A stretch of 64,000 nucleotides of DNA from Massospora cicadina (lineage: Eukaryota > Entomophthoromycota > Entomophthoromycetes > Entomophthorales > Entomophthoraceae): positions 1 to 64,000 of the forward strand of contig JAKSZP010009558.1 in assembly GCA_022478985.1 (NCBI GenBank), read 5' to 3'. Below, piece by piece: positions 22,710 through 63,640 of the stretch (position 1 is its first letter; each line of letters begins with the position of its first letter). Made by a program: the position numbers and the translations under genes. The notes under the pieces were generated by a model. It saw only the letters and a list, made by a program, of their open reading frames with translations, did no database searches and was not told the DNA's origin.

Positions 22710-24167
22710 TAAAAAGGGTCTCGTTGGGTTTGATCCCAGCCATTTTGTCAAGTAGCGACTGCCAAAAAATTCATTCCCATTCCGCCATAATTGGGGTGAA
22801 TTGGACAAAATAATGGGCCTATCAGCCCTCCTTGAGTTACTTTCAGGCCATAAACCTGTATTTTTGAGCCCATACTTGTTACTGAGGATTAGCCATAGAT
22901 TTATTAGGTTTAAAACCACTAGAGTCTTTCTGAGATGAGACCACTGCATCATCATTTGCATTTTCTTCATATTTTGGACGAACTAAGTTAAGCATTTGGT
23001 TGTTCCATTCAGTTTAAAATTCTCAATAGTCATTTTGCTGGATTGGCCCATCGTAAAAAACTTGTAGGATATTACTCCTGATGCTTTACACGCTGAAAGA
23101 GGCAATAGATGAGATAACAATGTGACAGCCACCATCATCACTGATACAAATGAGTGTGGACACTCCATTTGTTGGATTGGTTCCTTAGGGATCACCCAAT
23201 TAAATGAAACTTATAAAATTCTCAAAGAAAAGTTTGTCAAAATTAAAGGTTTATTAAGGGTAATACAAAATAATCAAATACTCTACCATCATCAGAGCTC
23301 TGGGTTTTTAAAACTGAAGAGAAGTGAGGGGCAGGAACTTGGAAACATTTCTTACAGCTGGGCGCGTAAATAGTCTTAAAACGCTGAGAATTTTTGTGTC
23401 ATGGGTCAGCTTGCATATTGCGGGTGCCTCAATCTGTGGTTCCTGTTGATAAATTTTTCACTTCCATCAGGGGTTTCAGCATGCCTATGTATCTTGCAAA
23501 ATTGCTAACAAATTTTTTTTCCTGTTGGAAGGATAATTGTGGGATCAATTTTAGCGTTGACCTTCATGTTGGGACTTTGTTCTCAAACTGCCCAATAATG
23601 CTTAGATTTCAATGCAGATTGTTGAAATTTTCATGACATAGGCTTGGCCAAATCAAATATTCTGGCGAAAACCTTCTTCTTTGTTCTTCAACTTTTTGCA
23701 AAATTGAGTCATGAGATTTCAGAATAAACCTACCGCTCATCAAGGGTGTGCCCTATACATGCCAATTTTTCTTATCAAAAGGCTTGGGGATGTTCCCCCT
23801 TTTCTTATCAAAAAGGGGTGAATCAACCAATTTAATTTTATGGGGCATCTGGGATCCTTAAACTACCATTTACTAAAAGGACAGGGTCTTCTCCTCCCTC
23901 TAGAGCCCATATCAGAGCATAATTCTTTTTAGGTGAGGGCAACTTAATGGCTGCAAGGGTCTGGGGGTTCATTGCAGCAGGCATCAAGGAAGTAGGATTT
24001 TTCTCATGGAACTCAGTGATTAGAGCATGACAATTGGTAAAACTGCATGCCAGAAACCAACTGTTTTCATAGGAAAACCCTTTTTGACGCCACCATGTAT
24101 TAAATCCTCCGTTTACAATTCCTTAAACCCATGATTTCCTCCACTTCAAATTCCAGCATTCCTTCCA

Positions 24168-25250
24168 TCAATAAGGGTTCAATATCCATAGTTTGGTTCC
24201 CTTTGAACAGTGACAGCACTGAAGCGTGGAAGGACTTATAAATCTTCTAGTGTATGGGCAAGTCCATATAAAAGGACCAATTATACAAGACTTTAATGAA
24301 GGAAACGGTCCTTTCCTATTGTAAGCCAGTTTGTGGCAGGATACCTTTAGGTTAAGAATTTTTGTGTCCACCAACACAGGTCTCCCAACTGGTACTCAGA
24401 AGCTGCTCTTCATTTTTGTTAGGTTTTTTGGCATTCAAAGAGGCTTTTGTTAATTGCCTCTGCACCTTCTGGTGTATTTTTGAATTTGTTTTGCAAAGCT
24501 ATCTGGTATGAACATAATTGTTTGAATTTGGGGCTGATTGTAATTTCTGGGTTGTAAACTAAGTTGGCATACAGCTGCGACATTCCAGTAGAGGCGTGCA
24601 TGGAATTATTATATGAGAATTGGGCTAAGACCAGATCTCCCAACCAAGTATCTTGAGCAGCTGAGGTGCAACACCGGAGATACTGCTTTAGGGACTGGTT
24701 AGTTTGCTTGGTTTGTCCATTGGACTAGGGGTGATAAGCCAATGATTGACATGGCATGATGTGAAGTATTAACACAGGGATTACCAGAATTTTGACATGA
24801 ACTGTTGTCCTCTGTCACTAATTATCTTCTGTGGTATCCCAAACATGGTGAAGACATGGGTCACAAACAAGTGGGCCATATATTCCGCTGTGGTTGTAGT
24901 TAAGCATGGGATGGACAGACTATATTTGGTGATTATGTCCATTACTCCAATGATTGCGTTGAACCTCTTTATATTGGGTAGACTGACTATGAAGTAGACT
25001 GATACTGATGTCTGCGGTCTCACTGCTTGTTGTAGTGGATACAAGAGCACATTTCGCCCAGTTCTGTCAGATTTGGATTATGAACAGGTCAGGCAGCATT
25101 TTATACTATCTGGAACAACCTTTGTCACTCCATTCCAGTCATACCTTCTTTATTAGGTTGGTAGTCTTCGTCCTCCAGGGTGTCCCATTGCTGGCGAATC
25201 ATGATGTTCCTTTATGACTCAGGGCCATAAACTTTTGGGCACCCATATGT
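24168..25250 (-). pseudogene. element G integrase (broken)
   Basis: Minus strand. The core has GVMDIITKYS (first Asp present) and IISDRGQQF (second Asp present), with FGIPQKI between them. The position of the catalytic Glu reads Lys (NGQTKQTNQS, codon 24707-24709); G3 also has Lys there (NGQTKKTNQS). The C-terminal part extends down to about 24170 with a few stops. It would join cDNA to the target. Confidence 0.87.
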
Positions 25251-25555
25251 GATCCTGAAATAAATCACCATATCCTTTTTTGAATATTAACTTGAGGGGC
25301 TTAAACCTAACTTTATCTGATCAAGCGCTTGTCCTTTGTAGTTTCTGCTTGCGCATCCAGTACTGCGACCTGGAGTACCAATCAGTACTGGATGGTGGGC
25401 TTGGTCCAGGAGTGTCCTGCTGCGCAAGCCCCTTTCCGTTGTTTGAGGTCTCAAGTGTTGTTGTCAGGGATAAGATTGATGGTGTTGCGGGGATTGCAAT
25501 GGCAGCAATTGATGCAGGTCCCACTGGTTCTCAGACAGCACATGTTTGAGGGAAA

Positions 25556-26940
25556 TCACCATAACCTAGTTGGCTCTTCCATGAGGTCAGCATATAATGC
25601 CAAGCTTCTACTTAGTATGTCCAGCAATATGTGCATAGGCCCCTTTAAAAACTCATATCTGAAGCTGTAGTTGAGCAGGTCTTGGTGGCTTCTAGTTTGT
25701 CTGTGCGCCAACTTATGCAGCTTGCAATAGTAGATAAGTGATTTATGATCCATGCACACCGTCACCGTGTGCTTTGCTTCCTGAAGTAAATACGACCAGT
25801 GCATCATTTCCCATGCTATTGCAATCAGCTCTTTATTGTAAAATTCCCATGACCGTTTGGCGCCTGTAAAATTCCTAGAGAAGTATGATACTGGGTGTTT
25901 GCGACCTCATGCTCCTGTAGCAATACTTCTCCCACAGCTGTACCAGAAGCATCACATGCTATAATAAAATGCTTATCTTTATCAGAGTGTCTTAGAACTG
26001 GCGCTGAAGAGAAAACTTCTTTTACAGCCTCAAAGGCCCGTTAGCTTTCCGCCGACCATGTAAATGGCACATTCTTTCATGTCAGTGGGAAGAGGGGGTT
26101 TAAGGTTTCAAAATTGCTGGTGAGAATTTCTTCAGAAAAGTAAGGATTACAAGAAGTTGCGGAGCTGCTTCTTTGTAGTGGGCGTTGCCCTTTTCTGTAT
26201 CACTTCCAGCTTGGAGGGAGCAATATCATGCCCATCTTTAAGCACTACATTTACCAGGAACTTCGCCTCATCTTTGAAAAGGTCAAACTCTAACGGCTTT
26301 GCATGCAGGCCTGCCAATTGTAAGATGGCCGCCACCGCCACTTGATTTTTCTCATGTTGCTCAGGAGCAGGGGAATGGACCATAATGTCATCATATACGC
26401 CACTGTGCATGTAAAGCGGAGGTCACCCAAAGCATTATTGATAACCCTCAGAAAGTGGCAGGGACATTTTTCAACCTGGGTGGTATGACTGGGAACTGGA
26501 ATATGATTTGTCAGGTCATATCGCCATCAGCCATTCTTGTCCCTCCTTTACTCAGACTTGGTGGAAGGCGTTGACTAGGTCCAGTTTTAAGATACTTTGG
26601 ACTTGGTTTTGATTGGGAGATTACAGCCTCTAGTGGGAGGGGTTTTTTTCAGTACAATAACGTTGTTTAAGTGGCCATAATCCACACATGGTCGAAAGGT
26701 CACATAATGTTTTTAGGCAAACACCACAGGGATGACACAAGTGAGGTTCCTTATTAGCTACCCTTTAACCATCATCTCATCAATCCAATCTTCATTGTAT
26801 GGTCCTTAGCTACTGTATACGGGTATATTGGGAAATTAATCTTAATAAGATACACCATTACAAAAAATTAATGTTAAACTTAGACTGGGGTGGCAATAGG
26901 TCACTTTGTGCACGTCAAATATTTTTTTGTTTAGCCAGTA
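25556..26940 (-). pseudogene. element G reverse transcriptase and RNase H (broken)
   Basis: Minus strand. RT occupies about 26940 to 26100. The catalytic box VAYIDDIMVHS, intact in G3, has lost one base here, leaving VAY then DDIMVHSPAPEQHE in another frame (26410 downwards). RNase H follows: HFIIACDASGTAV near 25960 keeps an active-site Asp, and HTVTVCMDHKSLIYYCKL lies near 25740. Several in-frame stops. Confidence 0.87.
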
Positions 26941-27601
26941 TTGCAGGAATTTTGGGGAGGTTGGCGACTGCACCCATGGCGAAGTATTCCACTGTGGCTG
27001 CCAGGGTTTTTCCTTACTTCAATTTGGGGATCATGGGAATCTCGCTGGAGTGATAGTATATTAAGAAAACAAGCACATTTCGTTTAATACTATTGTGACC
27101 AACTGTTGGCGCCACCATCCTACCCTCAGAATCATGGGGTAGTTTAGGTCCAGAATTGCTGAGAGGTTGGTATGGAACTGGTGTCCATTGGCTGAGAAGT
27201 GTAGTGGCTCTCTTTTTTAGCACTAGTGGTGCTTAACCTAAAAGGGGGAGATGCCACACATTTTTTTTGCAACTGGGCTAAACAAAGGGATTATCATATA
27301 AAAAATTTTCCAATATGACACCTCAGCTAACAGCCTAGGAAGCCATATCAAAAGGTGAGGAAGCTTTGTGGGAACTTTTTTTGGCGCCCGCTTTAGCTGG
27401 CGGACCATGGCAGACAGCATTGGGGTGTGAGCATCAGCGACATGGGGCATAAGGAGATATAGTTGGGGGTTTTCTTCATTTATGAGGCCAGCGGTGTCCA
27501 TCGCCTCAACGCATTGAGCAAATTGATGCTCAGCAAAAGTAATGAGAGCTGGCACACAAATGAAATACTTGATGCACCAGTGGGTTTCAGGGTAAGCAGG
27601 G

Positions 27602-41220: not shown

Positions 41221-41716
41221 AGTTGCTGAATTGGTTACAGTGAGTTCACCTGACCAAGTGCTGTCCAAGCCATCAACAGAACCAGCAACTATTGTGCCAT
41301 TGTAATCCCCACAACACCCTCAATATCACCCCAACGACCACATCTGAATCCCTCAATAATGCCATGGGGCCCACGCAATAAGACCCTCATGAACCAAGCC
41401 CACAAACAACGCTAATGGGTTTCTCTTGGACGCAGTACTGAATGCGTAAACAGAAACCATCAAAGGCCAAGCGCTTGGGTATCAGATACACTTGAGGAAA
41501 CCACATTAAGTTGGTACTCAAAATAGGATAGGGTGATTTACTTTTGGGATTGCATATGGGTGCCCAAAGTTATGCCCAAGGTATAAAGAAACATCATGAC
41601 CTGCCAATAATGTGTTACCCTGGAGGAAAGAAGACTATCAACCTAATAAAAAGAACATACGACTTGAATGGACTTATAAGGGGATGTCAGCTTGGATAGA
41701 ATGCTGCCAGACCTGT

Positions 41717-42882
41717 TGTAAAAATTTATGGGATTGATTATTTTTGGCCAATAACCCCTATAAACTTATTACTTGCACAGGTTAAGATTTTGTGAAATTT
41801 GTCCACGTTGTATGAAAGTTGATATAATCAGTTGGTAATAGTATGATGACTATTATCCATAGTTGAATGGAAGTCCTATATCTCAGCCCAACACTTGGCC
41901 AGTATAGCCGCCCAAAATACTTGTGATGTCTTGGAATAAGGATTCGTTTCCTCATAACATCTAACACGATCTTATATTAATTTCCTGTTGATGGATTCTC
42001 CAACTTTGACACACAGTTTGCAGAAATCCCCAATTTGATTCCACTTATTCTCTGGATCTCCTCTCAGATCCTTAGTCTTTTCCTTAAAGAGTTTCCCAAT
42101 TATAGTACACAGCTATAATATCCCTGAAAAAGAATAGAACAAATGAATGCTGATAAAGCGTAAAGAGCTGGTATATCTACTTTATACTCTTTACTAAAAT
42201 CTGTTAAATTCTGTACCCTTTTCTAAAATGTCATGTATCTTATTATAAGTGAATTCTAGGGAATATATAGTGGGGGATTCAGCGCCCAACCCTTGGTTGA
42301 CACCTCTTCGATAAAACAGCAGCTGTTGCCATTGAATCACCCATCCTCGTCTCATCAGCAATGGTCTTCCCCATCCTGCTAGGATTCCATCATTGGACAT
42401 CCTCAAGACCTAAAACGGAAAGAATTAGTAAACGTGTCCCTAACATTTTCCTCTCAATCCAATCAAACCAACCATATTTGGCAAGCGACCTGCTTAGGTA
42501 ATGGGACTTGTTACCCATTAAGGCAGGTAATGAACCAACTGATCAATTTGCTAATTGCAGGTGGCATCACTCTCCTCACAACTTACTCCATAAAATTCCT
42601 GATCAGTTGGTGATGAAACCTGACCAATACCAATCATTACATCTGGTAGTTAATCAACTATCAGATGTCCCTATTTCGTCAGCAATTCTGCCTGATGAGA
42701 TCTTAAGCATCTGTCCAGATCGATCCCTGATGGATCTGACCAGGCGAATAACCTAAAATCCCCAAAACATAGTTACTGCAAAATCAGGGTCAAATAATTT
42801 CCACTTCACCTTGCATTAGGAAATGATCCCCTAGCGCCCCTGGTAATCTAGTCAGCTGGGAATATGGTCAAAAATCCCAACA
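41717..42882 (-). repeat. H2 3' LTR
   Basis: 1166 bp; on the minus strand TGTTGGGATTTTTGACC...TTACA. Matches 48061-49221 and the H1 LTR 59748-60950 throughout. The purine tract AGGAAAGAGGGGGGATC directly precedes it on the minus strand (42883-42899). Confidence 0.93.
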
Positions 42883-42924
42883 GATCCCCCCTCTTTCCTA
42901 GATTTCCAGCAAGAAAAGGACTAG

Positions 42925-44530
42925 GCCAAGAGAACCCGCTTCAGACACTCAGTTGAATACTTCATTTGTTCAAGCGGAGTAAAATCATCAGTACTCAACG
43001 CTTCTTGGGACGACCTTTGGCATGCAGCTCTCTTCCTCTTCCTCCTTGCCACCGCCTACTCAGAGCGCAGTCCCCACGATCTACTGTCATGCTGGGCTGA
43101 TCAATTCACTCATGACAATATTAATCCTGAGATCCGGTTTTCCCGCATCAGGGCTTATGACTCACTGACATATTCAGGATTCTTGGTCTGGCATCCTCGA
43201 TTTTCTGATTTTCTCCTTGTCCTTAACAGGAGACTCTTGCTGTTGATGTTCATTTCATGGCCTAATTAAGAATGCTCATTTATGTACATCCTTGTTATTT
43301 TCTTCTCATAACCTCTAGGCCCATATCATTCTCAATTCTTCTCTGGAGAGCTTATCCCCTTAATTTTGAGATTAATTTCTCCGAATTTGGAGCTTAATTG
43401 ATTGTAGAGTGCATAATGTCAACTATCATATAAGTCTGACATCCCCCTTTTGTCCAGCTCATATGTCAAATTCCGAGTCATGGTACCAACAGCTGCTCAA
43501 CAGCTTGTCTGATCAAGATCTTTGGCTCTTCTAGCAGATAAGTAGAGCTGAGCGATGGAACCTCTTCTTCGGACCTTCAGGACTCATACGCCTAGTCTGG
43601 CATCAGTGGCTAGTCCTTCCATGGAATTACTGAAAATGAAACCAGCCCTTATGGAACCAGGCTAGCAATCATCTCAAACAACTCTAAGCTGATTCTTCCT
43701 CTGTCGTCTATTCCAGAGTTAGATTTCAAAACTCTCCTGGATTTGTCTCCTTTTACAGATGCGCCAAACATCATCATTGATGCTCCTAAAATAATGCCCT
43801 TCACACTTGATTGTTTCTTTCTCGCCAGGTCAAACTTGCTTCCAGAGTTCCTTTTCTGACTCAGTCAACACTACAAGCCAGCTGTCTTGGCCACCAAACT
43901 CACCATTAGCAACAGCATATATTTCAAACTCCCCTACGCAGAATTAAGGGACCAAGCTACTGAGGCTTTATCCATAGCACTGAATCTTTCTGATCTTGAG
44001 AACATCCTATATCGGGAAATTACACTTATGCTCTTCACTTTGGCAGCCAAGTTCTTCTAAGTTGGGCCTTGAATCTTCCAGCCTCTCCCAGCTTCCATTG
44101 CTCCTTCTGCTTCAGCTTACTAGAAGCTTGTGGTCATCACTTGCAGGATGACATTCATTCCTTGCATGACTATCTCATTTCTGGCGCATCCCATCGGTAT
44201 CTTCTGCTGATGGCGTTAGTAGGGGGCATGATTTAGCAACCCCCGTCAAGCATCCCTTGTTTGCTGTTGGCCCATATGTCTGGTGTTCTTGATGAAGCCT
44301 ATCGCCAAGCACTCAATATTAATCTTCCAGCTCTGGTACCATATTGGGATTACTCAGGGTTATTCACCAACTGCATATTCCTGTACTGTTGCTTCCCTCC
44401 CTGCTCCAGGGTTTCACGTTTGACTTCTTCTGACATATCAATTTCCCTTCCTCTAGTTGCTTTCTCGCAGGGATCTGTGTCCACTCATCTCACTTGGTTT
44501 TGTATAGGTTTAGCCCTTGCTAGCATCTGA
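42925..44530 (+). pseudogene. antisense accessory ORF of H2, unknown family (broken)
   Basis: Plus-strand frames run opposite to H2 gag-pol, between its integrase and 3' LTR. Block 1, 42925-43269: 114 codons without a stop (LWHAALFLFLLATAYSE inside). Block 2, 43463-43633: from an ATG, one internal TAG. Block 3, 43614-44060: 148 codons with a single TGA at 43857 (ILPLSSIPELDFKTLLDL; LRDQATEALSIALNLSDLE). Block 4, 44063-44530: one TAG at 44234 (LLAHMSGVLDEAYRQALNI). In the parts I translated on the minus strand (blocks 1 and 3) every frame has several stops. The residue mix looks like a soluble helical protein with hydrophobic stretches. The 43270-43462 gap may be an intron or decay. I recognise no family. 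Confidence 0.6.
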
Positions 44531-44744
44531 TCTCACATAGATTTCAATGGGTTGTTCACTCCTACTGCGATCCATCCTCCCTCCCCAAGAAGTGACATAG
44601 GAGTAATCATCCCTAAATTTAGTATAGTCATAAGAAGGAAAATTATAAAAATATATTATTTTTTTCTATGTGGGTTTATAATCTTTTTTACCAATGTCTT
44701 TATCAATCTTTTATTTTTTCTTCTTTTTTTCCTTAGGGCTTGAC

Positions 44745-44905
44745 TTTGGTTCAGTTCAGAGGTCCATCTCTTTTATTTTTACCCAAACTGAATCCTAAGT
44801 ATTCTTAGACCTACCAGTTCTTCATGGTCCAGAAGTCCTTTTTTGGACCTGTTCAATCATTAGGACATAGCCAACTTAATGGTTCAGCGTTCCTTCAGGA
44901 AGTCC
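44745..44905 (-). repeat. GGTTCAG-rich segment, second copy in H2
   Basis: About 160 bp related to 46905-47100 of the same element and to 61800-62010 of H1. Repeated short words on the plus strand: GGTTCAGAGGTCC, GGTTCAGCGTTCC, GGTCCAGAAGTCC, plus ACCTACCAGTT and CAAACTGA.CC. In H2 it lies next to the antisense ORF, outside its normal place between gag and RT. Confidence 0.7.
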
Positions 44906-44919
44906 TTTTTTGTTATTTT

Positions 44920-45870
44920 TTCATTAATCCATCGCTTCAAATACTTAGCATTAACTCTTTTTACTACTCTTCTATCCAAGAGGTTCTTGGTGGAGTAGGC
45001 ATCCGTCGCTGTCTTGGCAATAATCTCAAACAGACCTGACCACAATGCATCCAGTTCGTTTCTTCTCCTGAAACTATGCGTATTGCAATAGGCAACTCTT
45101 GCACCTATTCAATATTCTGATAAGGCCAGTTAGTTCATATCGTCCATCATTTTTGCTCATATCCTTTTCTTCAAAGTAGTATCAAATGCTTGCAATTGCA
45201 TATTGATCAGGATATTCAACAATTGGTTTATGTACTTCTTGGCACTCATCCCCAATGTTGGTTCTACCACCAAATATAAAATCGGTGACAATGCAGCCTT
45301 CCTCCCATATAGCAATTCAAATGGCCTTTTCCACGTTACTGTATAATGACTGATATTGTAGGCAAATGTCGCCAAACTCTGGTCTATTCCTCACGTGGAA
45401 GGTCTTCCTGTGACCAGCTTCCTCAGCGTCATGGCCAGCATTCCATTAACTTGTTCCACAAGTCCATTCATCTCCAGCTGGTAGGGTACAAACATTACTC
45501 CTCAGATACCCATTATCTCATTTAACTGTGGTATCACATGAGACGTGAAGTTTGTCCCATTGTTGCTAAGCAGGACCTACGGGCATCATGTCAGTATACT
45601 ACTTGATCCAGGATAAACTTTGTGGTACTGGTAGCATTCACTTTAGCCAGTTACCTTCATTTTGACCCATCTCTTCAGATGGTCAATTGCAACTATTATG
45701 TACTTGATCCCCCTGTGCTCATCGTCACTGGTCCCATCATGTCAATGGACACCATATGCCAAGCAAATCCAGAGCAGACCAGTCATTTTCCATTTGTATT
45801 CTCATGTGGCTTGTGCAACTGGCACTCCACACAACAAGCTAAATAGTTAGCGACATCATAGTCGATTGAC
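44920..45870 (-). pseudogene. H2 integrase (broken)
   Basis: Minus strand. Zinc-domain Cys pair CVECQLHKPHE near 45820; core YIIVAIDHLKRWVKM near 45680 keeps the first catalytic Asp; FAYNISHYTVTWKRPFELLYGRKA at 45300-45375 is the typical downstream part. A GPY/F-like stretch GLFEIIAKTATDAY near 45000 marks the C-terminal domain. Gypsy-type. Confidence 0.85.
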
Positions 45871-46228
45871 TCCCAGTAGTAGTACTAGCAAATATGGTAA
45901 GTTGTTTTTCTCAGGCCTCCATGCCCAACAACCTTATGAGCGGCTTGATCAATAGCTGCTCTTTCCAACAGCTTTGGGAATAGTAACTGCTTCCCATTAA
46001 TCGTCTTAAATACTTGTCCATCCATGGTCTCAGTGTTTTCCATCACTTTTCAAAGTGCACCTTGGATTTCTTGGAGCTCATTTTCAATTTCTCCGTCGAC
46101 CATTCTCTGGAATAACTCATCTGCCTGCTGGTAAATCATCTGGACCATTGGTAACTGCAAGAAGCCATCCTCATTCTGGTGAGAATCCCCCACTCAGTGG
46201 ACAATCATATAACCATAAGCCTGTAGCT

Positions 46229-46810
46229 TCAATGCCCATTTAACCACCCTTCTAGTTTTCTAAAATTGTGGAGCCAACTCAACAAGGAGTGGTCCATCAC
46301 CACTTTAAAGTGCATTCTGTGGATGTATATCAAAAACTGTTTACAAATGTAAAAGACCGCAAGGCATTCATGCTCAGTTACAGCGTAGTTCCTCTCAGTG
46401 GCTGAGATTGTCTGTCTCACATATGCACTGGATGTTCATCCCCAAGTTCATCTACTTGGCTTAATATGACGCCGATTGCCATCAATGAAGCATCAGTTTG
46501 TTTAATTAATTCTTGATTGAAATTCAGATATTTCAAAATTGGAGAATCTATTAGGCACTGGCATAACTCTTTGAAGGATTTCTACGCTTTTTTCATTCCA
46601 TATGAATCCTTTCTTCAGATTCTTCAACAGATGGAATAAGGGCTCGGTAATTCTGGCAAAATACCAAACAAATCTTCTGTAGTATCTGACCAAAACCAAA
46701 AACCACTTGGATATCTCAGACACTCTTCAGCACAGCCATTCGTTCTATGGCCTTGATCTTCCGGTAGATTGATACTTTAGCATTCCATGCCAGCAAATAT
46801 ATTTTATCAT
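46229..46810 (-). pseudogene. H2 RT thumb and RNase H (RT palm deleted)
   Basis: Minus strand. About 46810-46502 matches the H1 part after the RT palm (KIKAIERMAV; then VRYYRRFVWYFARITEPLFHLLKNLKKG). RNase H has ATERNYAVTEHECLAVFYICKQF and FKVVMDHSLLSWLHNF. The catalytic YLDD region present in H1 is absent: the sequence passes straight from the gag-side segment (46860) to the thumb. Confidence 0.85.
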
Positions 46811-46904
46811 AAGTCCAAAAATCATGGACCATAAAATTGATATTTAACATTTTGCATATTTTATCATTTTTTTGTATATTCTTTATGCAATGAGACTTTT
46901 AACC

Positions 46905-47100
46905 TACAAAAAGGTTCAGAGGTCCTTTTTCCCCTTCATCCAAACTGAGCCCTAGGTCTACTCTGACCTACCAGTTATCATGTTTCAAAATCTTATCCTC
47001 TTAAGATTTAACCATCCATTTGGTTCAGTAATCCTCTTCTAAGACTTGACCAAATTCTCAGGACATAACTTTTAATGGTTCAGAGGTTCTCTGGTAACAT
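46905..47100 (-). repeat. GGTTCAG-rich segment, gag-RT copy in H2
   Basis: Plus-strand words AGGTTCAGAGGTCC, TTGGTTCAGTAATCC and TGGTTCAGAGGTTC occur within 190 bp. It matches H1 61800-62010 in reverse orientation and in the same position between gag and RT. It may be gag/protease coding sequence with internal repeats, or a cis-acting element. Confidence 0.7.
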
Positions 47101-47109
47101 TGCAACAAT

Positions 47110-48030
47110 TTTCTCTTAGGTCCAATACTTCCAATTTTTTTTATTATCGACCTTCATCACTATATGACCAGAAGCGCTGTTTTTTCATATATATGCTACA
47201 CTTGCTGATTTTTAGCAATACTTTTGAATATATTAGGCCTTTAATTCTAACTGGTTATTCTTCCAACAGGCCCTAATTTCATCTCATATTTCGTCAACTG
47301 ATTCTTGAATATTCTTATCTCAATAGCCAACACTTTTTGTTCGAATGTTTAGATTGTTTTCTATTGAAAACGATTTTTGGCATTCATTGCCATTCTAAAC
47401 GTTGGAAGTAATTCCACTGGTGGATCTGTAAACGAACCCTCAATAACAAAGATCGTTCTGGCCTTATTAGCTTCATGCAATTTCGTTTGAATTATGGAAC
47501 TCATCTCCAGCAAATTCTGATCATTTATTGAGTGTTATTGATTTATATGATTTTCTCCACTACCTTGGATTAATCATTTCTGTTTTGACTTCATATCTTC
47601 GTTGGTGTGGAAATTTTTACTCTTAAATGATTGCTTCCTATTTCATCCAATGCCTCATCTAAACACTCACTCCACAGTACTATTTAAAGCGGACCCAATT
47701 TCAACCTGAGTTGATCCTACTGTTCCTTGGGACATTTTAAGATTACCCAAGTCAACCTAGTTGGCGCTGCTGATCCTCTTCATCTAAAGTACGTGTCCGG
47801 TGGAACAGGCTTCCTTACAGCACTAGATAGTTCCAAATCTAGGCTACAATTTTTTCCCTGGTAATGAGTATCTTCAATTTGCTTCACTTGGAGCTCCACT
47901 TCTGAGCTGGGTGAACGCCAATGCACGTGATCCACTTCATGTTCTGTCTTCAATAAAGTTACTTCCTTAGTAACTTATTTACAGAATTAGAAAATATCTT
48001 CATAGGACATCATGTTCTAAGTTCTTCTAC
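47110..48030 (-). pseudogene. H2 gag (broken)
   Basis: Minus strand, after the primer site. The frame EVDHVHWRSPSSEVELQVK, then DTHYQGKNCSLDLELSSAV, is open and matches H1 61075-61200, where a frameshift follows DTHYQGK. Further downstream an E/K/Q-rich part runs to 47110. No zinc knuckle seen. It takes the gag position; capsid function is inferred from place only. Confidence 0.7.
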
Positions 48031-48042
48031 TCAACTACACCT

Positions 48043-48057
48043 CTGTAGTGAGCACCA
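48043..48057 (-). other. H2 primer-binding site
   Basis: On the minus strand TGGTGCTCACTACAG, three bases after the 5' LTR. Identical to H1 (60954-60968), one base different from D. Confidence 0.85.
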
Positions 48058-48060
48058 CTT

Positions 48061-49221
48061 TGTAATAATTTATTGGGATTAATTATTTCTGGCCAATAAA
48101 CCCTATGAACTTACTACTTGCACAGGTTCAGATTTTGTGCAAATTGTCCATTTTGTATGATAGTTGATATATTCAATTTATAATAATATGATGACTATTA
48201 TCCATAGTTGAATGGAAGTCCTATATCTCAGCCCAACGCTTGGCCAGTATAGCCGCCCAAAATACTTGTGATGTCTTGGAATAGGGATTCGTTCCCTCAT
48301 ACCATATAACCCGATCTTCTCTTAGATTCCCATTGAAAGTTTATCCAGTTTTGACACACAGTTGGAAGCAATCCCCTGATTTATTTCCGCTTCTTCACAG
48401 GATCTCCACTCAGATCCTTACTCTTTTCCTTGAAGAGTCTCTCAATTATTGCACACTGCAATAATATCCCTGAGAAAAATAGAACAAATGAATGCTGATA
48501 AAGCGTAAAGAGCTGGTATATCTGCTGTATTTAATAAACTCTGTTAAACTCTGTACTACTGTCTAAACTATCATGTATCTTATTATAAGTGAATTCTAGG
48601 GAATTTATAGTGGGGGATTTGGCACCCAACCCTTGGCTGACATCTCTTTGATGAAAATGCAGCCTTTGCCATTGAATCACCCATCCTTGTCTCAGCAGCA
48701 ATGGTCTTTCCCATCCTGGCTAGGATTTCATCTTTGGACATCCTTGAGACCTAAAGAGGAAAGAGTCAGAAAACGTGTCCCTAACATTTTCCTCTCAATC
48801 CAAGCGAACCAACCATATTTGGCAAGCTACCTGCTTAGGTAATGGGACTTGTTACCCATTAAGGCACATAACGAACCAACTGATCAATTTATTAATTGCA
48901 GGTGGCATCACTTGCCTTGCAACTTACTCTGTAAAATTTTTGATCAGTTGGTAATGAAACCTGATTAATCCCAATCAGTACATCTGGTAGTTAATCAACT
49001 ATCAGATGTCCTTATTTTGCCAGCAATTCTGCCTGATGAGATCTTAAGCATCTGTGTGGATCCATACCTGATGGATCTGACCAGGAGAATAACCTAAAAT
49101 TCTCCAAACATAGTAGCCCAAAATCAGAGTCAAATGATTTCCACTTCACCTCGCATTAATAATGATTCCCTAGCGCCCCTGGTAATCTAGTCGGCTGGGA
49201 ATATGGTCAAAAATCCCAACA
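48061..49221 (-). repeat. H2 5' LTR
   Basis: 1161 bp. Pairs with 41717-42882. Differences are scattered substitutions and a few short gaps. Confidence 0.93.
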
Positions 49222-50446
49222 CCTGTGCATGATCCAAATATGACCAAACTTGGTGAAATGGGCTCTTGCATCAACTACAACAAGAAGTGGGACCGGAGAC
49301 ATCAGTATCAGTCTACTTCATAGTTAGTCTACCCAATTAAAGGGCTCAACGCGATCATTGTAGTAATGGGCATATACAACAAATATGGTCTGTCCATCCC
49401 ATGCTTAATTAGAACCACGGAGGAAGACATGGACCACTTGTTTGTGACCCATGTCTTCACCATGTTTGGGATACCACAGAAGATAATTAGTGACAGGGGG
49501 CAACAGTTCATGTCTAAATTCTGGGAGGCCCTGTGCTAATACTTCTCATCGTGCCATGTCAATCATTGGCTTATCACCCCTAGTCCAATGGACAAACCAA
49601 GAAAACTAACCAGTCCCTAAAGCAGTATCTCCGGTGTTGCACCTCAGCTGCTCAAGATACTTGGTTGGGAGATCTGGCCTTAGCTTAATTCTCATGTAAT
49701 GATTCCATGCACGCCTCTACTGGAATGTCGCAGCTGTATGCCAACTTAGTCTACAACCCAGAAATTACAATTGGCCCCAAATTCAAACAATTATGTTCAT
49801 ACCAGACAGATTTGCAAAACAAATTCAGAAAATACACCAGAAGGTGCAGAGGCAATTAACAAAAGCCTCTTTGAATGCCAAAAAGCCGACCAAGAATGGA
49901 GAGCAGCTTCTGAGTACCAGATGGGGGACCTGTGATGGTGGGCACAAAAATTCTTAACCTAAAGGAACACTGCCACAAACTTGCTTACAAGAGGGAAAGG
50001 TTCATATCACATCAGTAAAGTCTTGAATAATTGGTCCTTTTATATAAACTTGCCCCCACACTAGAAGATTCATAAGTCCTTCCACGCTTCAGTGATTTCA
50101 CCGTTCAAAGGGAACCGACCTTTGGACTTTGAACCCTTGTTGATGGAAGTAATGCTGGAATTTGAAGTGGAGGAAATCTTGAGTTTGAGGAATTGTAAAC
50201 GTGGTATCCATTAATAGATGACGTGAAAAGGGTTTTCCCATGACACAGTTGGTTTCAGGCCCGCAGTTGTACCAATTGTCATAATCTAATTCACTGAGTT
50301 TTATGCGCAAAGTCCTACTGCACTGACGCCTGCTGTAATGAAACCCCAGACCCTCTCAGCCACAAGCTGTCCATACCTCACAAACATTATGCTGTGGTAC
50401 AGGCTCTGGACGGAGGAGTAAACCCTGTCCTTTTAGGAAAGGGTAA

Positions 50447-54179: not shown

Positions 54180-57100
54180 TCGGGCATCTCAGTAGAGATA
54201 GGGACGCTGAACATAGTGGGACTCAAGGCCTTAATGTCCTGGGCCAAGAAATTGAGTCTCATAAGAAACCCACCTGTGTATATTCTGGCGGTGCAGGAAA
54301 TCCACTGTCCACAGGGAGAGGAGGAGGCATGGGAAACAATGCTCCTGCCAACAATATTGTTTTGGTCGCAACACTGTGGAGTGATAGTACACGCGAACCA
54401 AAGCTTTAAATTTATCAAATAAAAATTCATTCCTGGACAGCCGTGTACTCACCATAACCTTCTAATGGCACACCAAAGTGCACACAATAGTCAGTGTGTA
54501 CGCCCTGAACAGTGCACGTGACTGAAGAGAATTTCTCACAGCCCTAACACAACTAAATCTACCAGCAAATATTTTCATTATGGGAGACATGAACTGCTGG
54601 ATTAACCCAGAATTGGATCGATGGACATACACAATGGAGATACCACAAGGACAAGTGAAACTCCGCGTACTAAAGGCCACCCTGGGACTATATGATCCAC
54701 TACCAAAAGGCTACACCTGCTACAAAACATGACACGCCCAAATGTACACAATGGTACACTTGTCTCTATGTCAAGGATAGACCTAATACTTGCACCAATA
54801 ATTTTCCAACACCAAATTCAAAATTTAAAACTACAAAAATCAAATTTTCCGACCATTAGCTTGTTTCAGTGTCCTACAAACCGGCTGAACCAAGTACTCA
54901 AGCACCCAGATGGTGCAGAATATGCCCAGAAAGTTTAGCCGACTTGGAATTTCAATCCTGGATGGAGGAAATATCCTCAACCCAGGTCAATCACCTTTTT
55001 GCTCAGACCCACTAACCACCTGGGAAAACTTCAAAAAATCAACAACCCAACAAATTAAACATACATCGTCTAGAAGACACAGGGCAGCTTCAGCCATTAT
55101 CAAGCACACCTTGGCAGAAGATTGACCATCTAGAAAACAGCGTACTATGCACAGGATACAGCCCTGGATGGGGTCACAAATGGGTGGAGGTTTCTTCTCA
55201 GCTAAGCACCTTGATCTGTGAACACCAACACTGAGTTGGAGTACAATATAAAGGCAAAAACATAAGAGATGGAGAAACTTGCTTGAGCTAATTTTTCCGC
55301 TGATTCCACGCCTGTAAAATATGATAGCTTGCACACAGGTCTGTCAAATGGAGAAATCCATAGCAAAAACACCCAAAGAATTTGCGACCAAAGTGCACAA
55401 GTTAAATAAAAATTTGTAAAAATCTGAGCTGGTCAAACCAGAGAAAATTGAAAATTCCTTAGAAGCGCATATATTGACACCACGGCCCAGAATAACACTT
55501 TAATCAATTTAATATCGCGTGAGGAATTATGGGAAGTAGTACGCGGTGCACCAAGAGGGAAATGATTGGACCTGATGGGATTCCCTATGAATTTTATATA
55601 AAGTATTTTACCAACATCGTTAATACCCTTTTAGCCTCAATGAACAAGTGTATTATGTAAACATGCCTCTTACCTGGAGGTAAAGAAGCCTACACGGTCA
55701 CTTTATTAAAAAAAGGAGACAGATTTGACCTCTTCAACTGGCGCCCAATTTCCCTAACCAACACAGATACAAACCTTTCACAAGAATTATGGCCAAAAGA
55801 CTAGGAGAAATTGGAACTGACGCGATATCCCCCATCACATTATGGATTTGTTTCAAGAAGATCCATATGGGACAACATCCACACAGTTGCAGATGTCAGC
55901 CAGTCCAAAACCTCTGGAGCACTTTTCTTTTTAGACCATAAAAAGGCATACGACATAGTGAACTGGACTTATCTTAGGGCCTGCCTTCAAAAACTCAAGC
56001 GCCCAAATAGATTCATAAACTGGGTGATGTTTTTCACAGAGTCTGCTACCATGGATGTGCGGGGAGCAGGCTTCTTAACCAGCCTAGTCATCCCACAGAA
56101 AGGACGCAAACAAGGAGACCCCTTAAGCCTATACTCTACAATTTTAGCTTAGACCCCCTAATCCGGAATACAAACACACTTCTCAAAGGAATCAATGTCA
56201 AGGGCCAGCCACCAGTCAAAATGATGGCCTTCGCTGATGATTGTGTGGTGGGAGTATCCAACAATAAGACGCTTGCAGGATTGATAAGATAATACAAGAT
56301 TATTCATCCATAAGTAATGCATCACTTAACACTGAGAAAACGGAAATTATACTCCTGGGAAAATATCAGACCAAGAGGATGCCATCTACCCTGGGCCAAC
56401 AAACAAATACAACATCAAGACTTTTTACAGGCATAGGAGCAAAAATTAGCAACAACCTCACTGAAACTTCCATTCACCACCAAGCCAACAGCTGGCCCTG
56501 TTCGTCACTTGGGAGTATGGTTGGAAGCAGGAGGTTACTCCAACTCCATGATGGAAAATCAACTTCTAGACAAAATAAAAAAACGCATTGTCTCCTTATA
56601 TGGACTCCAAACAGGTCTAACAGGAAGGGTCACGGTAGCCAGCTCTATGATCCTATCAATCATATGATTCACGGCCCATGCAATCGCTTTCTCACCATCC
56701 TTCTTCAACACAATTCACTCCATATTACAAAGATGGCTATGGTCCAACCACAACCCCCCTGTACACCTCAAAACCCTATTTGGTGCTAGAAGGAATGGAG
56801 GTATGGGGCTTACTAATCACGTAGAGCAAGCGACCCATATACTAGGATCTTGGATAGCTCAGTTGACTAGCCCAGATCTTCCAGATACACACTGGGACAG
56901 AACAGCAAGTTATAACTTCACACGTGCACTCCAATTAAGAAACCCAAAACACCCAACCACATTAATCAAGTATCTGGCATCCCATCCTACAGCGGCAGGT
57001 CCACACGGCACTCCTGCACATTTCAAACGAATACTCTTAGCCATGAGAAGAGAGACATGGCGGATCCACACTAATTGACCAAACCAGTCACCAAGGACGC

Positions 57101-59747: not shown

Positions 59748-60950
59748 TGTTGGGATTTCTGACCATTTTCCCAGCTGACTAGATTACCAGGGGCGCTAGG
59801 GGATGATTCCCTAAGGCGAAGTGAATTGGAAATTGGTTGGCCTGAAATTTGGTGTAACTATGTTTGGGGGATTTTTGGGATATTCGCCTGGTCATATCTG
59901 TTGGGATCAATCCAGATGGATACTTAAGATCTTGTCAGGCGGAGTTGCTGAAAAAATAGGGGCATCTGATAGTTGATTAACTATCAGGTGTACTGATTGG
60001 GATTGGTTGGGTTTCATCACCAATTGATTGGGAATTTTATGGAGTAAGTTGTGAGGAGAGTGATGCCACCTGCAATTAGCAAATTGATCAGTTGGTTCAT
60101 TACCTGCCTTAATGGGTAAAAAGTCCCATTACCTAAGCGGGTCAATAGCCAAATATGGTTGGTTCACTTGGATCGAGAGGAAAATGTTAGGGACACGTTT
60201 TATGACTCTTTATGTTTAGGTCTCAAGGATGTCCAATGATGGAAACCTAACCAGGATGGGGAAGACCATCGCTGCCAAGATGAGGATGGGTGATTCAATG
60301 GCAACAGCTGCCATTTCATTGAAGAGGTGTCACCCGAGGGTTAGATGACCAAATACCCACTATAAATTCCCTAGAAATCACTCATAATAAAAAACAGCAT
60401 TTAGTAAAACAGATTTTACAATAGTATCTTATCAATATAGTTTTCATCTGATATATATAGTTTAAGTAGTAAACTATTATCTTTTTTTTATTACTAGATG
60501 GTAGTAAACTATTATTAGCTTTCCATTGTTCTATTCTTCTCAAGGATATTATTACTGTGTGCGATAATTGGGAGACTATTAAGGGAAAAGAGTAAAGATC
60601 TGAGTGGGGATCTAGAGAAGAAGGAGATTAAACAGGGATTGCTGCCTACTGTGTGTTGGACAGAAGAGACTGTCACCAGGGAATCTTAGAGAAGATCAGG
60701 TTGGACAGAATGAGGGAATGACTCCCTAGATCAAGACATCTCAAATATTTCAATTGGGAATACTAGCCGAGTGTTGGGTTAAGATATAAGAATTTACACT
60801 CAACTACAGATGATAGTCAGCATACTATTATTAATCAATAATCTAATATACTATACAATGCAGATGAAGTGCACAAGAAACTGAACCTGTGCAGTAATAA
60901 TTTTACTGGGGTTGTTTTCTGATAATAACCTGAAACTGTAAATATTTACA
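59748..60950 (+). repeat. H1 5' LTR
   Basis: 1203 bp, TGTTGGGATTTCTGACC...AATATTTACA. Matches both H2 LTRs; slightly longer because of extra AT-rich sequence near 60430-60530. Confidence 0.92.
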
Positions 60951-60953
60951 AGT

Positions 60954-60968
60954 TGGTGCTCACTACAG
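60954..60968 (+). other. H1 primer-binding site
   Basis: TGGTGCTCACTACAG, three bases after the LTR, identical to H2. Confidence 0.85.
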
Positions 60969-61019
60969 AGGTGTAGTTGAGTAGAAGAACTTAGAACATG
61001 ATGTCCTATGAAGATATTT

Positions 61020-62060
61020 TCTAATTCTTTAAATAAGTTACTAGGGAAAGTAACTTTAATGAAGATAGAACGTGAAGTGGATCACATTCATTGGCGTTCA
61101 CCCAGCTCAGAAGTGGAGCTCCGAGTGAAACAAATGGAAGATACTCATTACCAGGGAAAAGGACTTGCAGCCTAGATTTGGAACTATCTAGGGCCGTAAG
61201 GAAACCTGTTCTACCGGACATATACATGAGATGAAGAGGATCAGCAGGGCCAACTTGGGTTGATATTGGGTCCGCTTTAAATAGTACTGGGGAGTGAGTG
61301 TTAAGATGAGGCATTGGATGAAATAGGAAGCAATCAACTTGGAGAATTGGATTGCTATACCAATGAAGATATAAAGTCAAAGCAGAAATAGTTAATCCAA
61401 GATAGTGGAGAAAATCATTTGAATTAATAACACTCAATCAATGATCAGAAGTTTCTGGAGATGAGCTTATTAATTCAAGAGAAATTGGATGAAGCTAACG
61501 AGGCCAGAATAACCTGTGTAATTAAAGATGGAAATGAATGCCAAAAATCGTTTTCAGGAGAAAAACAACTTTAAAAATTAGACAGAATTGTTGGCTAATG
61601 AGATACAATGATCCAAAGCATCAGTTGTCGAAATATGAGATGAAATTAGAACCTGTTAGATGAATAACCATTCTGTATTAAAGGACTAATACTTAAGAGT
61701 ATTGCCAGATTCGGCAAGAGTAGCCTATATATAAAGTGACAGCGCTGCTGGTCATATAGGGAAGAAGGTCAATACTAATCAGAATTATTGAGCCTGAGAG
61801 AAAATAGTTGCAATGTTCCCAGAGGACCTCTGAACCATTAAATGATTATGTCCTGAGATTTTGGTCAAGTCCAAGAAGAGGACCACTGAACCAAATGGTT
61901 GGTTAAATCTTAAGAGGATAAGATTTAGAATCATGATAACTTGTAGGTTTAAGTACTTAGGACCCAGTTTGGATGAAGGGGAAAAGAAGGACCTCTGAAC
62001 CTTTTTGTAGGTTGCAAGTCCCATTGCAAAAGAAAAATACAAAAAATATATAAAGGATAT
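61020..62060 (+). pseudogene. H1 gag region (broken)
   Basis: EVDHIHWRSPSSEVELRVK then DTHYQGK matches H2 gag and is followed by a frameshift. The E/K/N-rich middle runs to about 61600. The GGTTCAG-rich segment (in reverse, GAGGACCTCTGAACC and GAAGGACCTCTGAACC) lies at 61800-62010. No protease site recognised. Confidence 0.65.
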
Positions 62061-62309
62061 AAAAGATATTAAATATCGAAAATTATGGTCTATGAGTTTT
62101 GGACCTAAGTGAAGAGAAATCCTGATGGCTAAACTGAGGAGATTCCATCCTCAATGAGATGGAATTATTGGCTGGGTAACCAAGAGTATCAACCTATTAG
62201 TTAATTGAGAGCAACTCGCTGATCTATCAGAAGGCCAGCAAGAGGAGGTGCACAAATTATTTGAAAAGCTTTGGTAAGTATTTTCTTAGGATGACCATGA
62301 TTTGGGATG

Positions 62310-62950
62310 CACAAAAAATGTGATCCACAAGGTCGACACTAAGAAAATTTGCTGATCAGGATGAGACTGATACAATAATCAAAAGCAACTGAAGCGGTAG
62401 TGGAAGATGAAAGCAGCAAACTAGTGAAGCATGGGCTTCTAGTTCTGTTGTTGAGTCCCTGGGTGAGTCTGATTCTAATCATGAAGAAAAAGGATGGCTC
62501 CAACCAGGTGGTGATCAACTACCAAAAGCTGAATAAGATTACAAAAAAGGATTTGTATCCCTTACAAAGAATTGACGATGCGCTAGACTAATTGGAAAAA
62601 GCAAAGTAATTCTCCATGATGGTTTTGATATCGTGGTATTGGCAAATTGACTTGCCAAAAGAAGACCAAAAAAAAGCAATTATTACTGCGCAGGGGCTAT
62701 TTCAACTGACGAGGATGCCCCAAAGTCTATGTAATGCGCCTGCAACGTTTCAGAGGGCCATGGACGCTATACTGAGCGACTTGAAGTTGTCATGCATCCC
62801 GGTATACTTGGACGATATTAATGTGTTCAGTAGGACGTTTACTGATCTCCTACACCACTTGGAAGAAGTATTCAAGTGACTGTCCATGGCTAACCTGAAG
62901 ATTAAGCAAAAGAAGTGCAACTTTTTTAAAAAAAGAGTTGGAATATCTGG
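62310..62950 (+). pseudogene. H1 reverse transcriptase (broken)
   Basis: Start NVIHKVDTKK near 62320, LIMKKKDGSNQVVINYQKLNK, PLQRIDDALD, a stop, YWQIDLPKEDQKKAIITA, PQSLCNAPATFQRAMDAIL, and the intact catalytic box YLDD at 62805-62816 (VYLDDINVFS). Then TDLLHHLEEVFK and a stop. This is the best preserved RT palm of the gypsy elements here. Confidence 0.92.
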
Positions 62951-63640
62951 GATTCATGATCAACTCTAGTGGATTGCAATCGCAATCCCAGAAAATAGAA
63001 GCCTTAGAACAGATGTCTGTGCAGAAGTGTGTCCGAGACATTCAAGTGTTCCTTGGGATGGTCAGATATTACATAAGATTTATTTGGGACTTTTCCTGAA
63101 TAGCTGAGCCCTTATTCCATCTTTTGAAGGATCTAAAAAAGGAACATATGGAATGAAGAAGTCCAGGAATCCTTTGATGAGCTACGCCAGTATCTAATAG
63201 ATTTACCAATCTTGAAATATCCAAATTTCAATTGAGAGTTTATTATACAAACTGATGCTTCATTGACAGCAATCAGCGCTATACTAAGCTAAGTAGACGA
63301 ACTTGGGGATGAACATCTGGTGTTATATGTGAGCTGGACACTCTCAGCCACTGAGAGGAACTACACCATAACTGAGAGTTAATGCCTTGTGGTCATTTAC
63401 GCCTGTAAGCAGTTTTGGGTGTATATCCATGGAATGCACTATAAAGTGGTGATGGACCACTCCTCATTGCTGTGACAGATTGTGGTCAGCCTGATCCGCA
63501 CATTGACCTCGTGAATATTGGTTTGAATTTGCATACAAATTTGGAGGTCGAATTGGGAGAATCAGACAAATTTGGAAAATCTTTAGAAAAAGGCAATCAT
63601 AGGTAAGGATTTGAGGATCCACAAACAAGGACTGATCTGG
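62950..63640 (+). pseudogene. H1 RT thumb and RNase H (broken)
   Basis: CVRDIQVFLGMVRYYIRFIWDFS and LFHLLKDLKK (thumb), then IIQTDASLTAISAIL near 63250 (active-site Asp present), SATERNYTIT near 63350, ACKQFWVYIHGMHYKVVMDHSS. Decays after 63480. Homologous to H2 46229-46810 on the minus strand. Confidence 0.88.

What the first reader, a model, noticed from the sequence alone, without database searches (positions are those of the whole stretch)
42925..44530. Antisense gene carried by a gypsy-type element (H2)
Seen: four plus-strand blocks with very few stops (114 codons with none; 148 codons with one; about 156 with one; a 57-codon block with one) fill most of the stretch between the H2 integrase and its 3' LTR, opposite to gag-pol. 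The minus-strand frames I translated (blocks 1 and 3) are full of stops, so this is not a shadow of a sense gene. Known: some plant Tat-lineage gypsy elements carry an extra antisense ORF between pol and the 3' LTR. Inferred: H2 descends from an element with its own antisense accessory gene, perhaps spliced (gap 43270-43462). I recognise no family, so this may be an undescribed accessory protein.
Basis: partly seen in the sequence, partly recalled or inferred. Interest (0 to 1): 0.86.

Follow-up and report, generated by a model that had tools for sequence, protein, structure and literature searches.

The report
Antisense accessory gene in fungal retrotransposon
A very common, worn-out jumping element in a huge, probably fungal, genome carries an extra gene on its opposite strand; copies across the genome show that this gene once made a selected protein of no recognised family, a kind of extra gene already known from some plant and fungal elements.

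Summary
The window copy alone does not prove the claim: its longest plus-strand open block (114 codons, 42925-43269) is matched by 180 of 500 dinucleotide shuffles, and that block shows no coding signal in 51 copies. Comparison of copies nevertheless shows a real antisense gene beside it. It starts at an ATG at 43463 (26 of 31 copies; about 44 of 51) and runs, without need of an intron, to about 44641, about 390 codons. Of 251 shared variable sites 131 are third codon positions (52/131/68, p = 9e-10). Median dN/dS is 0.33, against 0.40 for the element's integrase and 0.55-0.69 for LTR in arbitrary frames. A TATAAG motif 28 bases before the ATG is kept in 40 of 51 copies. The host is a decayed Ty3/gypsy-type LTR element, 41717-49221, minus strand. 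The protein has no significant match in Pfam, PDB sequences or the protein database. [quoted passage not shown] fungal Boty), so this is a new, orphan member.

The parts
41712..41716 (.). target-site duplication CCTGT, left (repeated at 49222-49226)
   Evidence: read; an uninterrupted homologue of the flanks lies at window 22771-27212, whose two matches overlap by 7 bases at 25083-25089
41717..42882 (-). 3' LTR of H2
   Evidence: direct repeat of 48060-49221, 88.5% identical over 1159 aligned bases, K2P 0.125
42885..42899 (-). polypurine tract next to the 3' LTR, on the element strand
   Evidence: read by eye (pyrimidine run on plus); pairwise identity 0.896 in the 40-bp bin from 42860
   Evidence: no codon-phase signal in 51 copies (27/29/36, p=0.48); dN/dS 0.47-0.75, about the LTR baseline
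43280..43462 (+). stop-rich leader upstream of the ATG; candidate antisense promoter / 5' UTR
   Evidence: all plus frames closed at 43340-43459; pairwise identity 0.82-0.87 in the 40-bp bins from 43300 to 43459, as in 43140-43219 and above most other bins of the stretch
43429..43434 (+). TATAAG motif, candidate TATA box of the antisense gene
   Evidence: present at the site in 40 of 51 copies; shown per copy
43463..44641 (+). antisense accessory gene (broken in this copy), about 390 codons, no intron needed
   Evidence: ATG in 26 of 31 copies; one register in 17-29 of 31 copies per interval; codon phase p=8.8e-10; dN/dS 0.33; TAA at 44639 in 50% of the 24 copies with letters there
44860..46200 (-). 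integrase of H2 (zinc-binding and core domains recognised in other copies)
   Evidence: stop map; Pfam Integrase_H2C2 in L043 and, below its cut-off, rve in L042; the C-terminal limit is read by eye
46200..48059 (-). remainder of gag-pol of H2, with an internal loss near 46771-46810 relative to the element at 59748-63464
48060..49221 (-). 5' LTR of H2
49222..49226 (.). target-site duplication CCTGT, right

Best explanation
H2 belongs to a high-copy Ty3/gypsy-type LTR family whose working ancestors carried, between integrase and the 3' LTR and on the opposite strand, a single-exon accessory gene (43463 to about 44641). Shown: a conserved start, one register in the majority of copies at each interval, and purifying selection about as strong as on integrase. 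Inferred: the gene is transcribed from its own core promoter (TATAAG at 43429) in the leader between the 3' LTR and the ATG, not from the 5' LTR, and the protein acts as a trans-acting accessory factor of the element's life cycle, most likely regulatory or nuclear, as proposed for Grande gene23 and Retand. The window copy is an old, broken insertion and makes no such protein.
For: 31 copies (window plus 30): one plus frame stays at 0.6-2.7 stops per 100 codons over 43518-44419, while each other frame rises to 8-12 somewhere. Shared variants there fall 30/22/50 by codon position against 58/67/53 for singletons (p=0.0025). 51 copies: shared sites 52/131/68 by phase, p=8.8e-10; the first and middle thirds agree at all three cut-offs. 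Controls: integrase 44980-45760 p=0.0023; LTR (29 copies) 0.9, spacer 0.75, stop-rich gap 0.41. 15 stop-free stretches in other copies: 99 pairs, median dN/dS 0.37, range 0.22-0.71; by frame 0.33 against LTR 0.55-0.69 and integrase 0.40. Strand: 0 stops in the coding frame against 139-240 in each of the other five over 3239 codons (stretches were chosen stop-free). ATG 26 of 31. TATAAG 40 of 51. Own-genome protein search: 150 matches listed out of 23,984 first-look candidates. 22 of 30 copies align in one piece from LTR to beyond 46000.
Against: Every copy examined is broken somewhere. The window's own openness is not beyond chance, and two copies (L010, L035) have a minus-strand run that none of 60 shuffles reaches. 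With 31 copies only the first third is significant by itself (p=0.0004; middle 0.89, last 0.25); with 51 the last third loses significance at the strictest cut-off (p=0.41), and 44540-44640 never has it (p 0.28-0.55), so the C-terminal end is uncertain. One integrase stretch, 45820-46200, is not significant either (p=0.099). The mirror minus frame has dN/dS 0.37 because it shares the wobble columns; strand assignment rests on stops. 12 of 31 copies are one base shorter at 43990-44070 and 12 of 31 at 44220-44300, which I take as recurrent loss without proof. The copies were fetched with the region itself; of 5 picked by integrase, 3 have it at the expected place and 2 do not. No transcript or protein was seen; promoter and function are inferred.
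Confidence: 0.8

Rival explanations
1. No gene: the plus strand is pyrimidine-rich and so poor in stops, and the open blocks are chance.
For: In the window alone 180 of 500 shuffles reach the longest open block; several copies are no more open than their shuffles, for example L014, L026, L028, L037.
Against: Composition does not give a fixed register across copies, a third-position bias (p=8.8e-10), or dN/dS well below the LTR baseline. LTR, spacer and block 1 show none of this.
Confidence: 0.04
2. A two-exon antisense gene with block 1 as first exon, spliced over the stop-rich stretch 43284-43457.
For: A branch-site-like CTGAC, a pyrimidine run and an AG at 43456 (0.92 of 51) lie just before the ATG; a GT at 43284 would keep the frame. 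Block 1 is stop-poor in one frame.
Against: GT at 43284 in 4 of 20 divergent copies; block 1 has uniform codon phase (p 0.39-0.84 over the whole block) and baseline dN/dS. A short 5' UTR intron with another donor (for example the GT at 43409, 0.94 of 51) is not excluded.
Confidence: 0.1
3. The selected unit is an antisense RNA (for example a silencing decoy or regulator) and the frame is a by-product.
For: Antisense transcripts without coding capacity exist in other retroelements (PMC7264820, passages).
Against: An RNA role does not predict third-position bias, a conserved in-frame start and low dN/dS. It may come on top of the protein.
Confidence: 0.05
4. A captured host gene, or the relic of another element nested in the H family, not an element function.
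For: No relative was found that would tell.
Against: The region is collinear with LTR and integrase in 22 of 30 copies, in elements that mostly still have pol (15 of 20), and selection matches that on integrase. In the window and L043 three seed stretches match only H2 and the element in L043.
Confidence: 0.06

Closest known systems
Antisense additional ORFs between pol and 3' LTR (aORF-3R) of plant Ty3/gypsy elements: Grande gene23, RIRE2, Retand ORF4, PvRetro13
   Same: same place and orientation; in many copies; own promoter reported for Grande gene23; function not established (PMC7264820 and PMC11963269, passages)
   Different: no TRP28 (PF04195) match; the only Pfam listings at E<=1 are TetR_C_45 (0.098) and Ppx_C (0.21), each in 1 of 12 fragments. 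Host probably an entomophthoralean fungus. Region between integrase and 3' LTR about 2 kb (by eye) against 2.9-6.6 kb in Retand
Boty / BcGypsy1 antisense gene brtn of Botrytis cinerea
   Same: a fungal Ty3/gypsy element with an extra antisense gene (PMC7264820 and PMC8365987, passages; the primary paper, Zhao et al. 2011, was not seen)
   Different: the BRTN sequence was not at hand, so kinship is untested
Retroviral antisense genes (HTLV-1 HBZ, HTLV-2 APH-2)
   Same: a protein gene antisense to gag-pol (PMC11963269, passage)
   Different: HTLV uses an antisense promoter inside the 3' LTR (PMC7264820, passage); here the candidate promoter lies inside the element

Membership tests
aORF-3R (antisense ORF between pol and 3' LTR) | lies between pol and 3' LTR, antisense to gag-pol | tested here: met
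aORF-3R (antisense ORF between pol and 3' LTR) | present in all or most copies of the family | tested here: inconclusive
   copies fetched with the region itself have it by construction; of 5 picked by integrase 3 have it in place and 2 do not
aORF-3R (antisense ORF between pol and 3' LTR) | conserved about as well as other element proteins | tested here: met
   dN/dS 0.33 against integrase 0.40
aORF-3R (antisense ORF between pol and 3' LTR) | antisense transcription | not testable with these tools
   no RNA data; only a TATAAG motif in 40 of 51 copies
Retand/Tat TRP28 proteins | Transposase_28 domain PF04195 | tested here: not met
   12 fragments scanned, no PF04195 at E<=1
Boty BRTN | sequence kinship with BRTN | not tested
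   sequence not held; the protein-database search gave nothing at E<=0.01 among the 8000 candidates scored
env-like ORF | sense orientation | tested here: not met
   antisense
env-like ORF | transmembrane segments | tested here: inconclusive
   highest 19-residue hydropathy in stretches I take as in register 1.53; 1.74-2.37 in L015, L036, L046, L050, L051, where the peak lies in a frame-shifted part or past the usual stop
Ty3/gypsy LTR element | LTRs with TG..CA, 5-bp target duplication, RT-RNase H-integrase order | tested here: met
   RT (E=0.0043) and rve (3e-6) below the curated cut-off, RNase H and H2C2 above it

The most novel reading that the evidence does not exclude
An orphan family of antisense accessory proteins, unrelated to the plant TRP28 proteins and to BRTN, with its own internal promoter, arose independently in a Ty3 lineage of early-diverging fungi, was kept under selection as strong as on integrase, and took part in the Ty3 expansion that fills such giant genomes.
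Probability: 0.35. Interest if true: 0.6.

Novelty: new member of a known kind. Interest (0 to 1): 0.45.

Why it matters
Antisense accessory genes of LTR elements have no established function (PMC7264820, passages). This is a case with very many copies in one genome, so selection on the gene can be measured against integrase and LTR in the same elements. If the protein is unrelated to the plant and Boty ones, such genes arose repeatedly, which would point to a recurring need of Ty3 elements. It also shows how a stop-poor strand can mislead: the most open block is not the gene.

Tried and rejected
Chance or composition: rejected for 43560-44480, accepted for block 1. Splice of block 1 to the ORF through GT 43284: rejected. 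The alternative tail ending near 44208 seen in L015, L018, L030 and L044-L051: taken as separate one-base losses into a stop-poor overlapping frame, because the protein query itself contained that tail; inheritance of such a loss was not tested. Env-like protein: rejected on orientation. Search of relatives in viral contigs could not run because the alignment had no conserved stretch to search with. Organism check by 18S (Rfam RF01960) did not complete. The M. cicadina protein P0005 finds pieces at 79-93% in the listed matches but no exact one (capped list), so the organism is close to, but not shown to be, that assembly. Structure prediction was not run: the tool admits window sequences and loci from some other tools, not those of the genome search, and the window pieces (81 and 97 aa) without relatives would give a poor model.

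Kept by RT-less derivatives? Of 24 copies looked at upstream, 4 share one RT deletion junction (L040-L042, L087). Of the 20, 15 are collinear with pol over at least 800 bases, 1 has the shared deletion, 1 (L090) another deletion, and 3 (L095, L096, L098) break off earlier. No special tie was found.

Full report
Setting. The window is the first 64 kb of contig C8287 (93 kb) of a 1.47-Gb assembly in 16,968 contigs. The source is not named. A LINE protein from the flank of copy L022 has one hit at E<=1e-5, a hypothetical protein of Massospora cicadina (66% identity over half the query). The genome paper of that fungus reports 1.488 Gb, 41.1% GC and 92% transposable elements, 73% of them Ty3 (PMC9584336, part 1 of 3 of the text read). 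An exact match to that protein was not among the listed matches (pieces 79-93% identical). I therefore write 'probably an entomophthoralean fungus close to M. cicadina', as an inference.

The element. A 1.16-kb direct repeat, 41717-42882 and 48060-49221, is 88.5% identical (K2P 0.125). It is bounded by CCTGT on both sides. The flanks match, without the insert, another stretch of the window (22771-27212) whose two matches overlap by 7 bases at 25083-25089, so H2 is one insertion with a 5-bp duplication. A purine tract on the minus strand precedes 42883 and integrase reads on the minus strand, so 41717-42882 is the 3' LTR. RNase H (4e-31) and integrase zinc-binding (8e-12) are recognised in fragments of sister copies, rve (3e-6) and RVT_1 (0.004) below their cut-offs. 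H2 lacks part of pol near 46771-46810 relative to the element at 59748-63464.

The observation. The open blocks are there, but the strand is pyrimidine-rich. In the window alone the longest block is not unusual: 180 of 500 dinucleotide shuffles reach 114 codons. Of 30 other copies, read at 43463-44640, some exceed their shuffles (L011, L015, L027, L030: 0 of 60 reach the observed run) and some do not (L028: 56 of 60 reach it); the median longest run is 124.5 codons against 100 for shuffles on plus, and 74 against 73.5 on minus, where L010 and L035 also exceed all 60. So openness alone is weak evidence, and other tests were needed.

Copies. DNA searches of the own genome gave 40 scored matches each from about 12,000 candidates. 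I used 30 other copies (L006, L010-L038) plus the window, and later 20 more, chosen from the protein matches for being stop-free or divergent (L044-L063 with upstream pieces L064-L083). That protein search, with a 218-residue stretch, listed 150 matches, down to 59% identity, out of 23,984 candidates.

The gene. Counting stops per frame across copies without any consensus, one plus frame stays at 0.6-2.7 stops per 100 codons over 43518-44419 on the coordinates of copy L011, similar to integrase on the other strand. 43340-43459 is closed in all plus frames. An ATG at 43463 is kept in 26 of 31 copies and about 44 of 51 (0.86), followed in most by the same peptide start. In 13 of 15 intervals from 43463 to 44600 most copies (17 to 29 of 31) have the same length modulo 3 as L011, and L011 itself is the odd one in the other two (43510-43560 and 44480-44540, 25 of 31 differ from it). 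Twelve of 31 copies are one base shorter at 43990-44070 and twelve at 44220-44300; I take these as recurrent losses, which is not proved. A TAA at 44639 occurs in half of the 24 copies with letters there.

Selection. In 31 copies, sites with a shared variant are third positions in 50 of 102 cases over 43520-44419, against 53 of 178 for singletons (p=0.0025); by thirds only the first is significant (0.0004, 0.89, 0.25). Controls: integrase 44980-45760 p=0.0023 and 45820-46200 p=0.099; LTR 0.9; spacer 0.75; stop-rich gap 0.41; block 1 0.31. With 51 copies the shared sites of 43560-44480 split 52/131/68 (p=8.8e-10; minor allele 8 or more), against 27/29/36 (p=0.48) for block 1 under the same rule. 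At the strictest rule (12 or more) the last third alone is not significant (p=0.41), and 44540-44640 never is. Pairwise dN/dS over 400 random pairs is 0.33 in the coding frame, 0.40 in the integrase frame (351 pairs), 0.55-0.69 for LTR in six arbitrary frames, and 0.47-0.75 for block 1. The baseline below 1 shows why a control is needed. In 15 stop-free stretches the median is 0.37 over 99 pairs, all below 1; some of these include the shifted tail. The mirror minus frame of the gene also gives 0.37, since it shares the wobble columns, but it carries 1.7 to 9 stops per 100 codons.

Promoter and splice. The leader 43300-43459 has pairwise identity 0.82-0.87, above most neighbouring bins but equalled by 43140-43219 inside block 1. 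TATAAG ends 28 bases before the ATG and is kept in 40 of 51 copies. AG at 43456 is kept too, but the in-frame donor considered, GT at 43284, is in 4 of 20 divergent copies. A short 5' UTR intron remains possible. That the TATAAG drives transcription is an inference.

The protein. Fragments of the first two thirds are acidic (pI 4.6-6.1), those of the last third neutral to basic (pI 6.8-9.6); the in-register parts show no clear membrane segment (my reading of register). Pfam lists only TetR_C_45 (0.098) and Ppx_C (0.21), each in 1 of 12 fragments, under the cut-offs; no PDB sequence matches the profile at E<=1, and no protein at E<=0.01 (310 candidates, 8000 scored). The protein database does hold at least one M. 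cicadina protein, but the genome paper masked repeats before gene calling, so absence there means little.

Presence. Because copies were fetched with the region itself, I took the 5 best other integrase matches and read 451 bases at the expected place: 3 have the gene region, 2 do not. 22 of the 30 copies align in one piece from LTR to beyond 46000. Of twenty stretches upstream of known copies 15 are collinear with pol, so the gene belongs to elements with pol; one RT-deletion derivative also carries it (4 of 24 copies looked at).

Comparison. Antisense ORFs between pol and the 3' LTR are known from plant Grande, RIRE2, Retand and PvRetro13 and from the fungal Boty element (PMC7264820, passages); Retand ORFs mostly carry TRP28 (PMC11963269, passages), which was not found here. 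A library search for Entomophthorales with 'LTR retrotransposon' and 'antisense' found 0 papers, and a search on fungal antisense ORFs listed 3 papers, of which I saw titles and abstract openings only, naming no such gene. I therefore call it a new, orphan member of a known kind. Its role (regulatory or nuclear) is by analogy only.

Noticed in passing
L040:5301-5305, L041, L042, L087: An RT-less derivative of the H family: by eye the start of RT is fused to the end of RNase H, at one shared junction, in 4 of 24 copies looked at.
   Followed up: partly
window 45160-45740 and L105: Copy C6072 is 93% identical to H2 in integrase but only 80% in the antisense region, which suggests mosaic descent by recombination or conversion.
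   Followed up: no
window 22771-27212: An uninterrupted homologue of the sequence into which H2 inserted, i.e. a pre-insertion version of the flanks in the same contig.
   Followed up: partly
43463-44540 across 31 copies: One-base losses far outnumber one-base gains relative to the majority register (about 77 to 10, my hand count); decay or homopolymer errors of a long-read assembly cannot be told apart.
   Followed up: no
L107, L109: Two copies found by integrase lack the antisense region at the expected place.
   Followed up: no
window 398-2615 (minus) and 55501-57075 (plus): LINE elements with long open frames; relatives of this kind of LINE protein are abundant in the genome and most listed pieces are stop-free, so they may be much younger than the H elements.
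   Followed up: no
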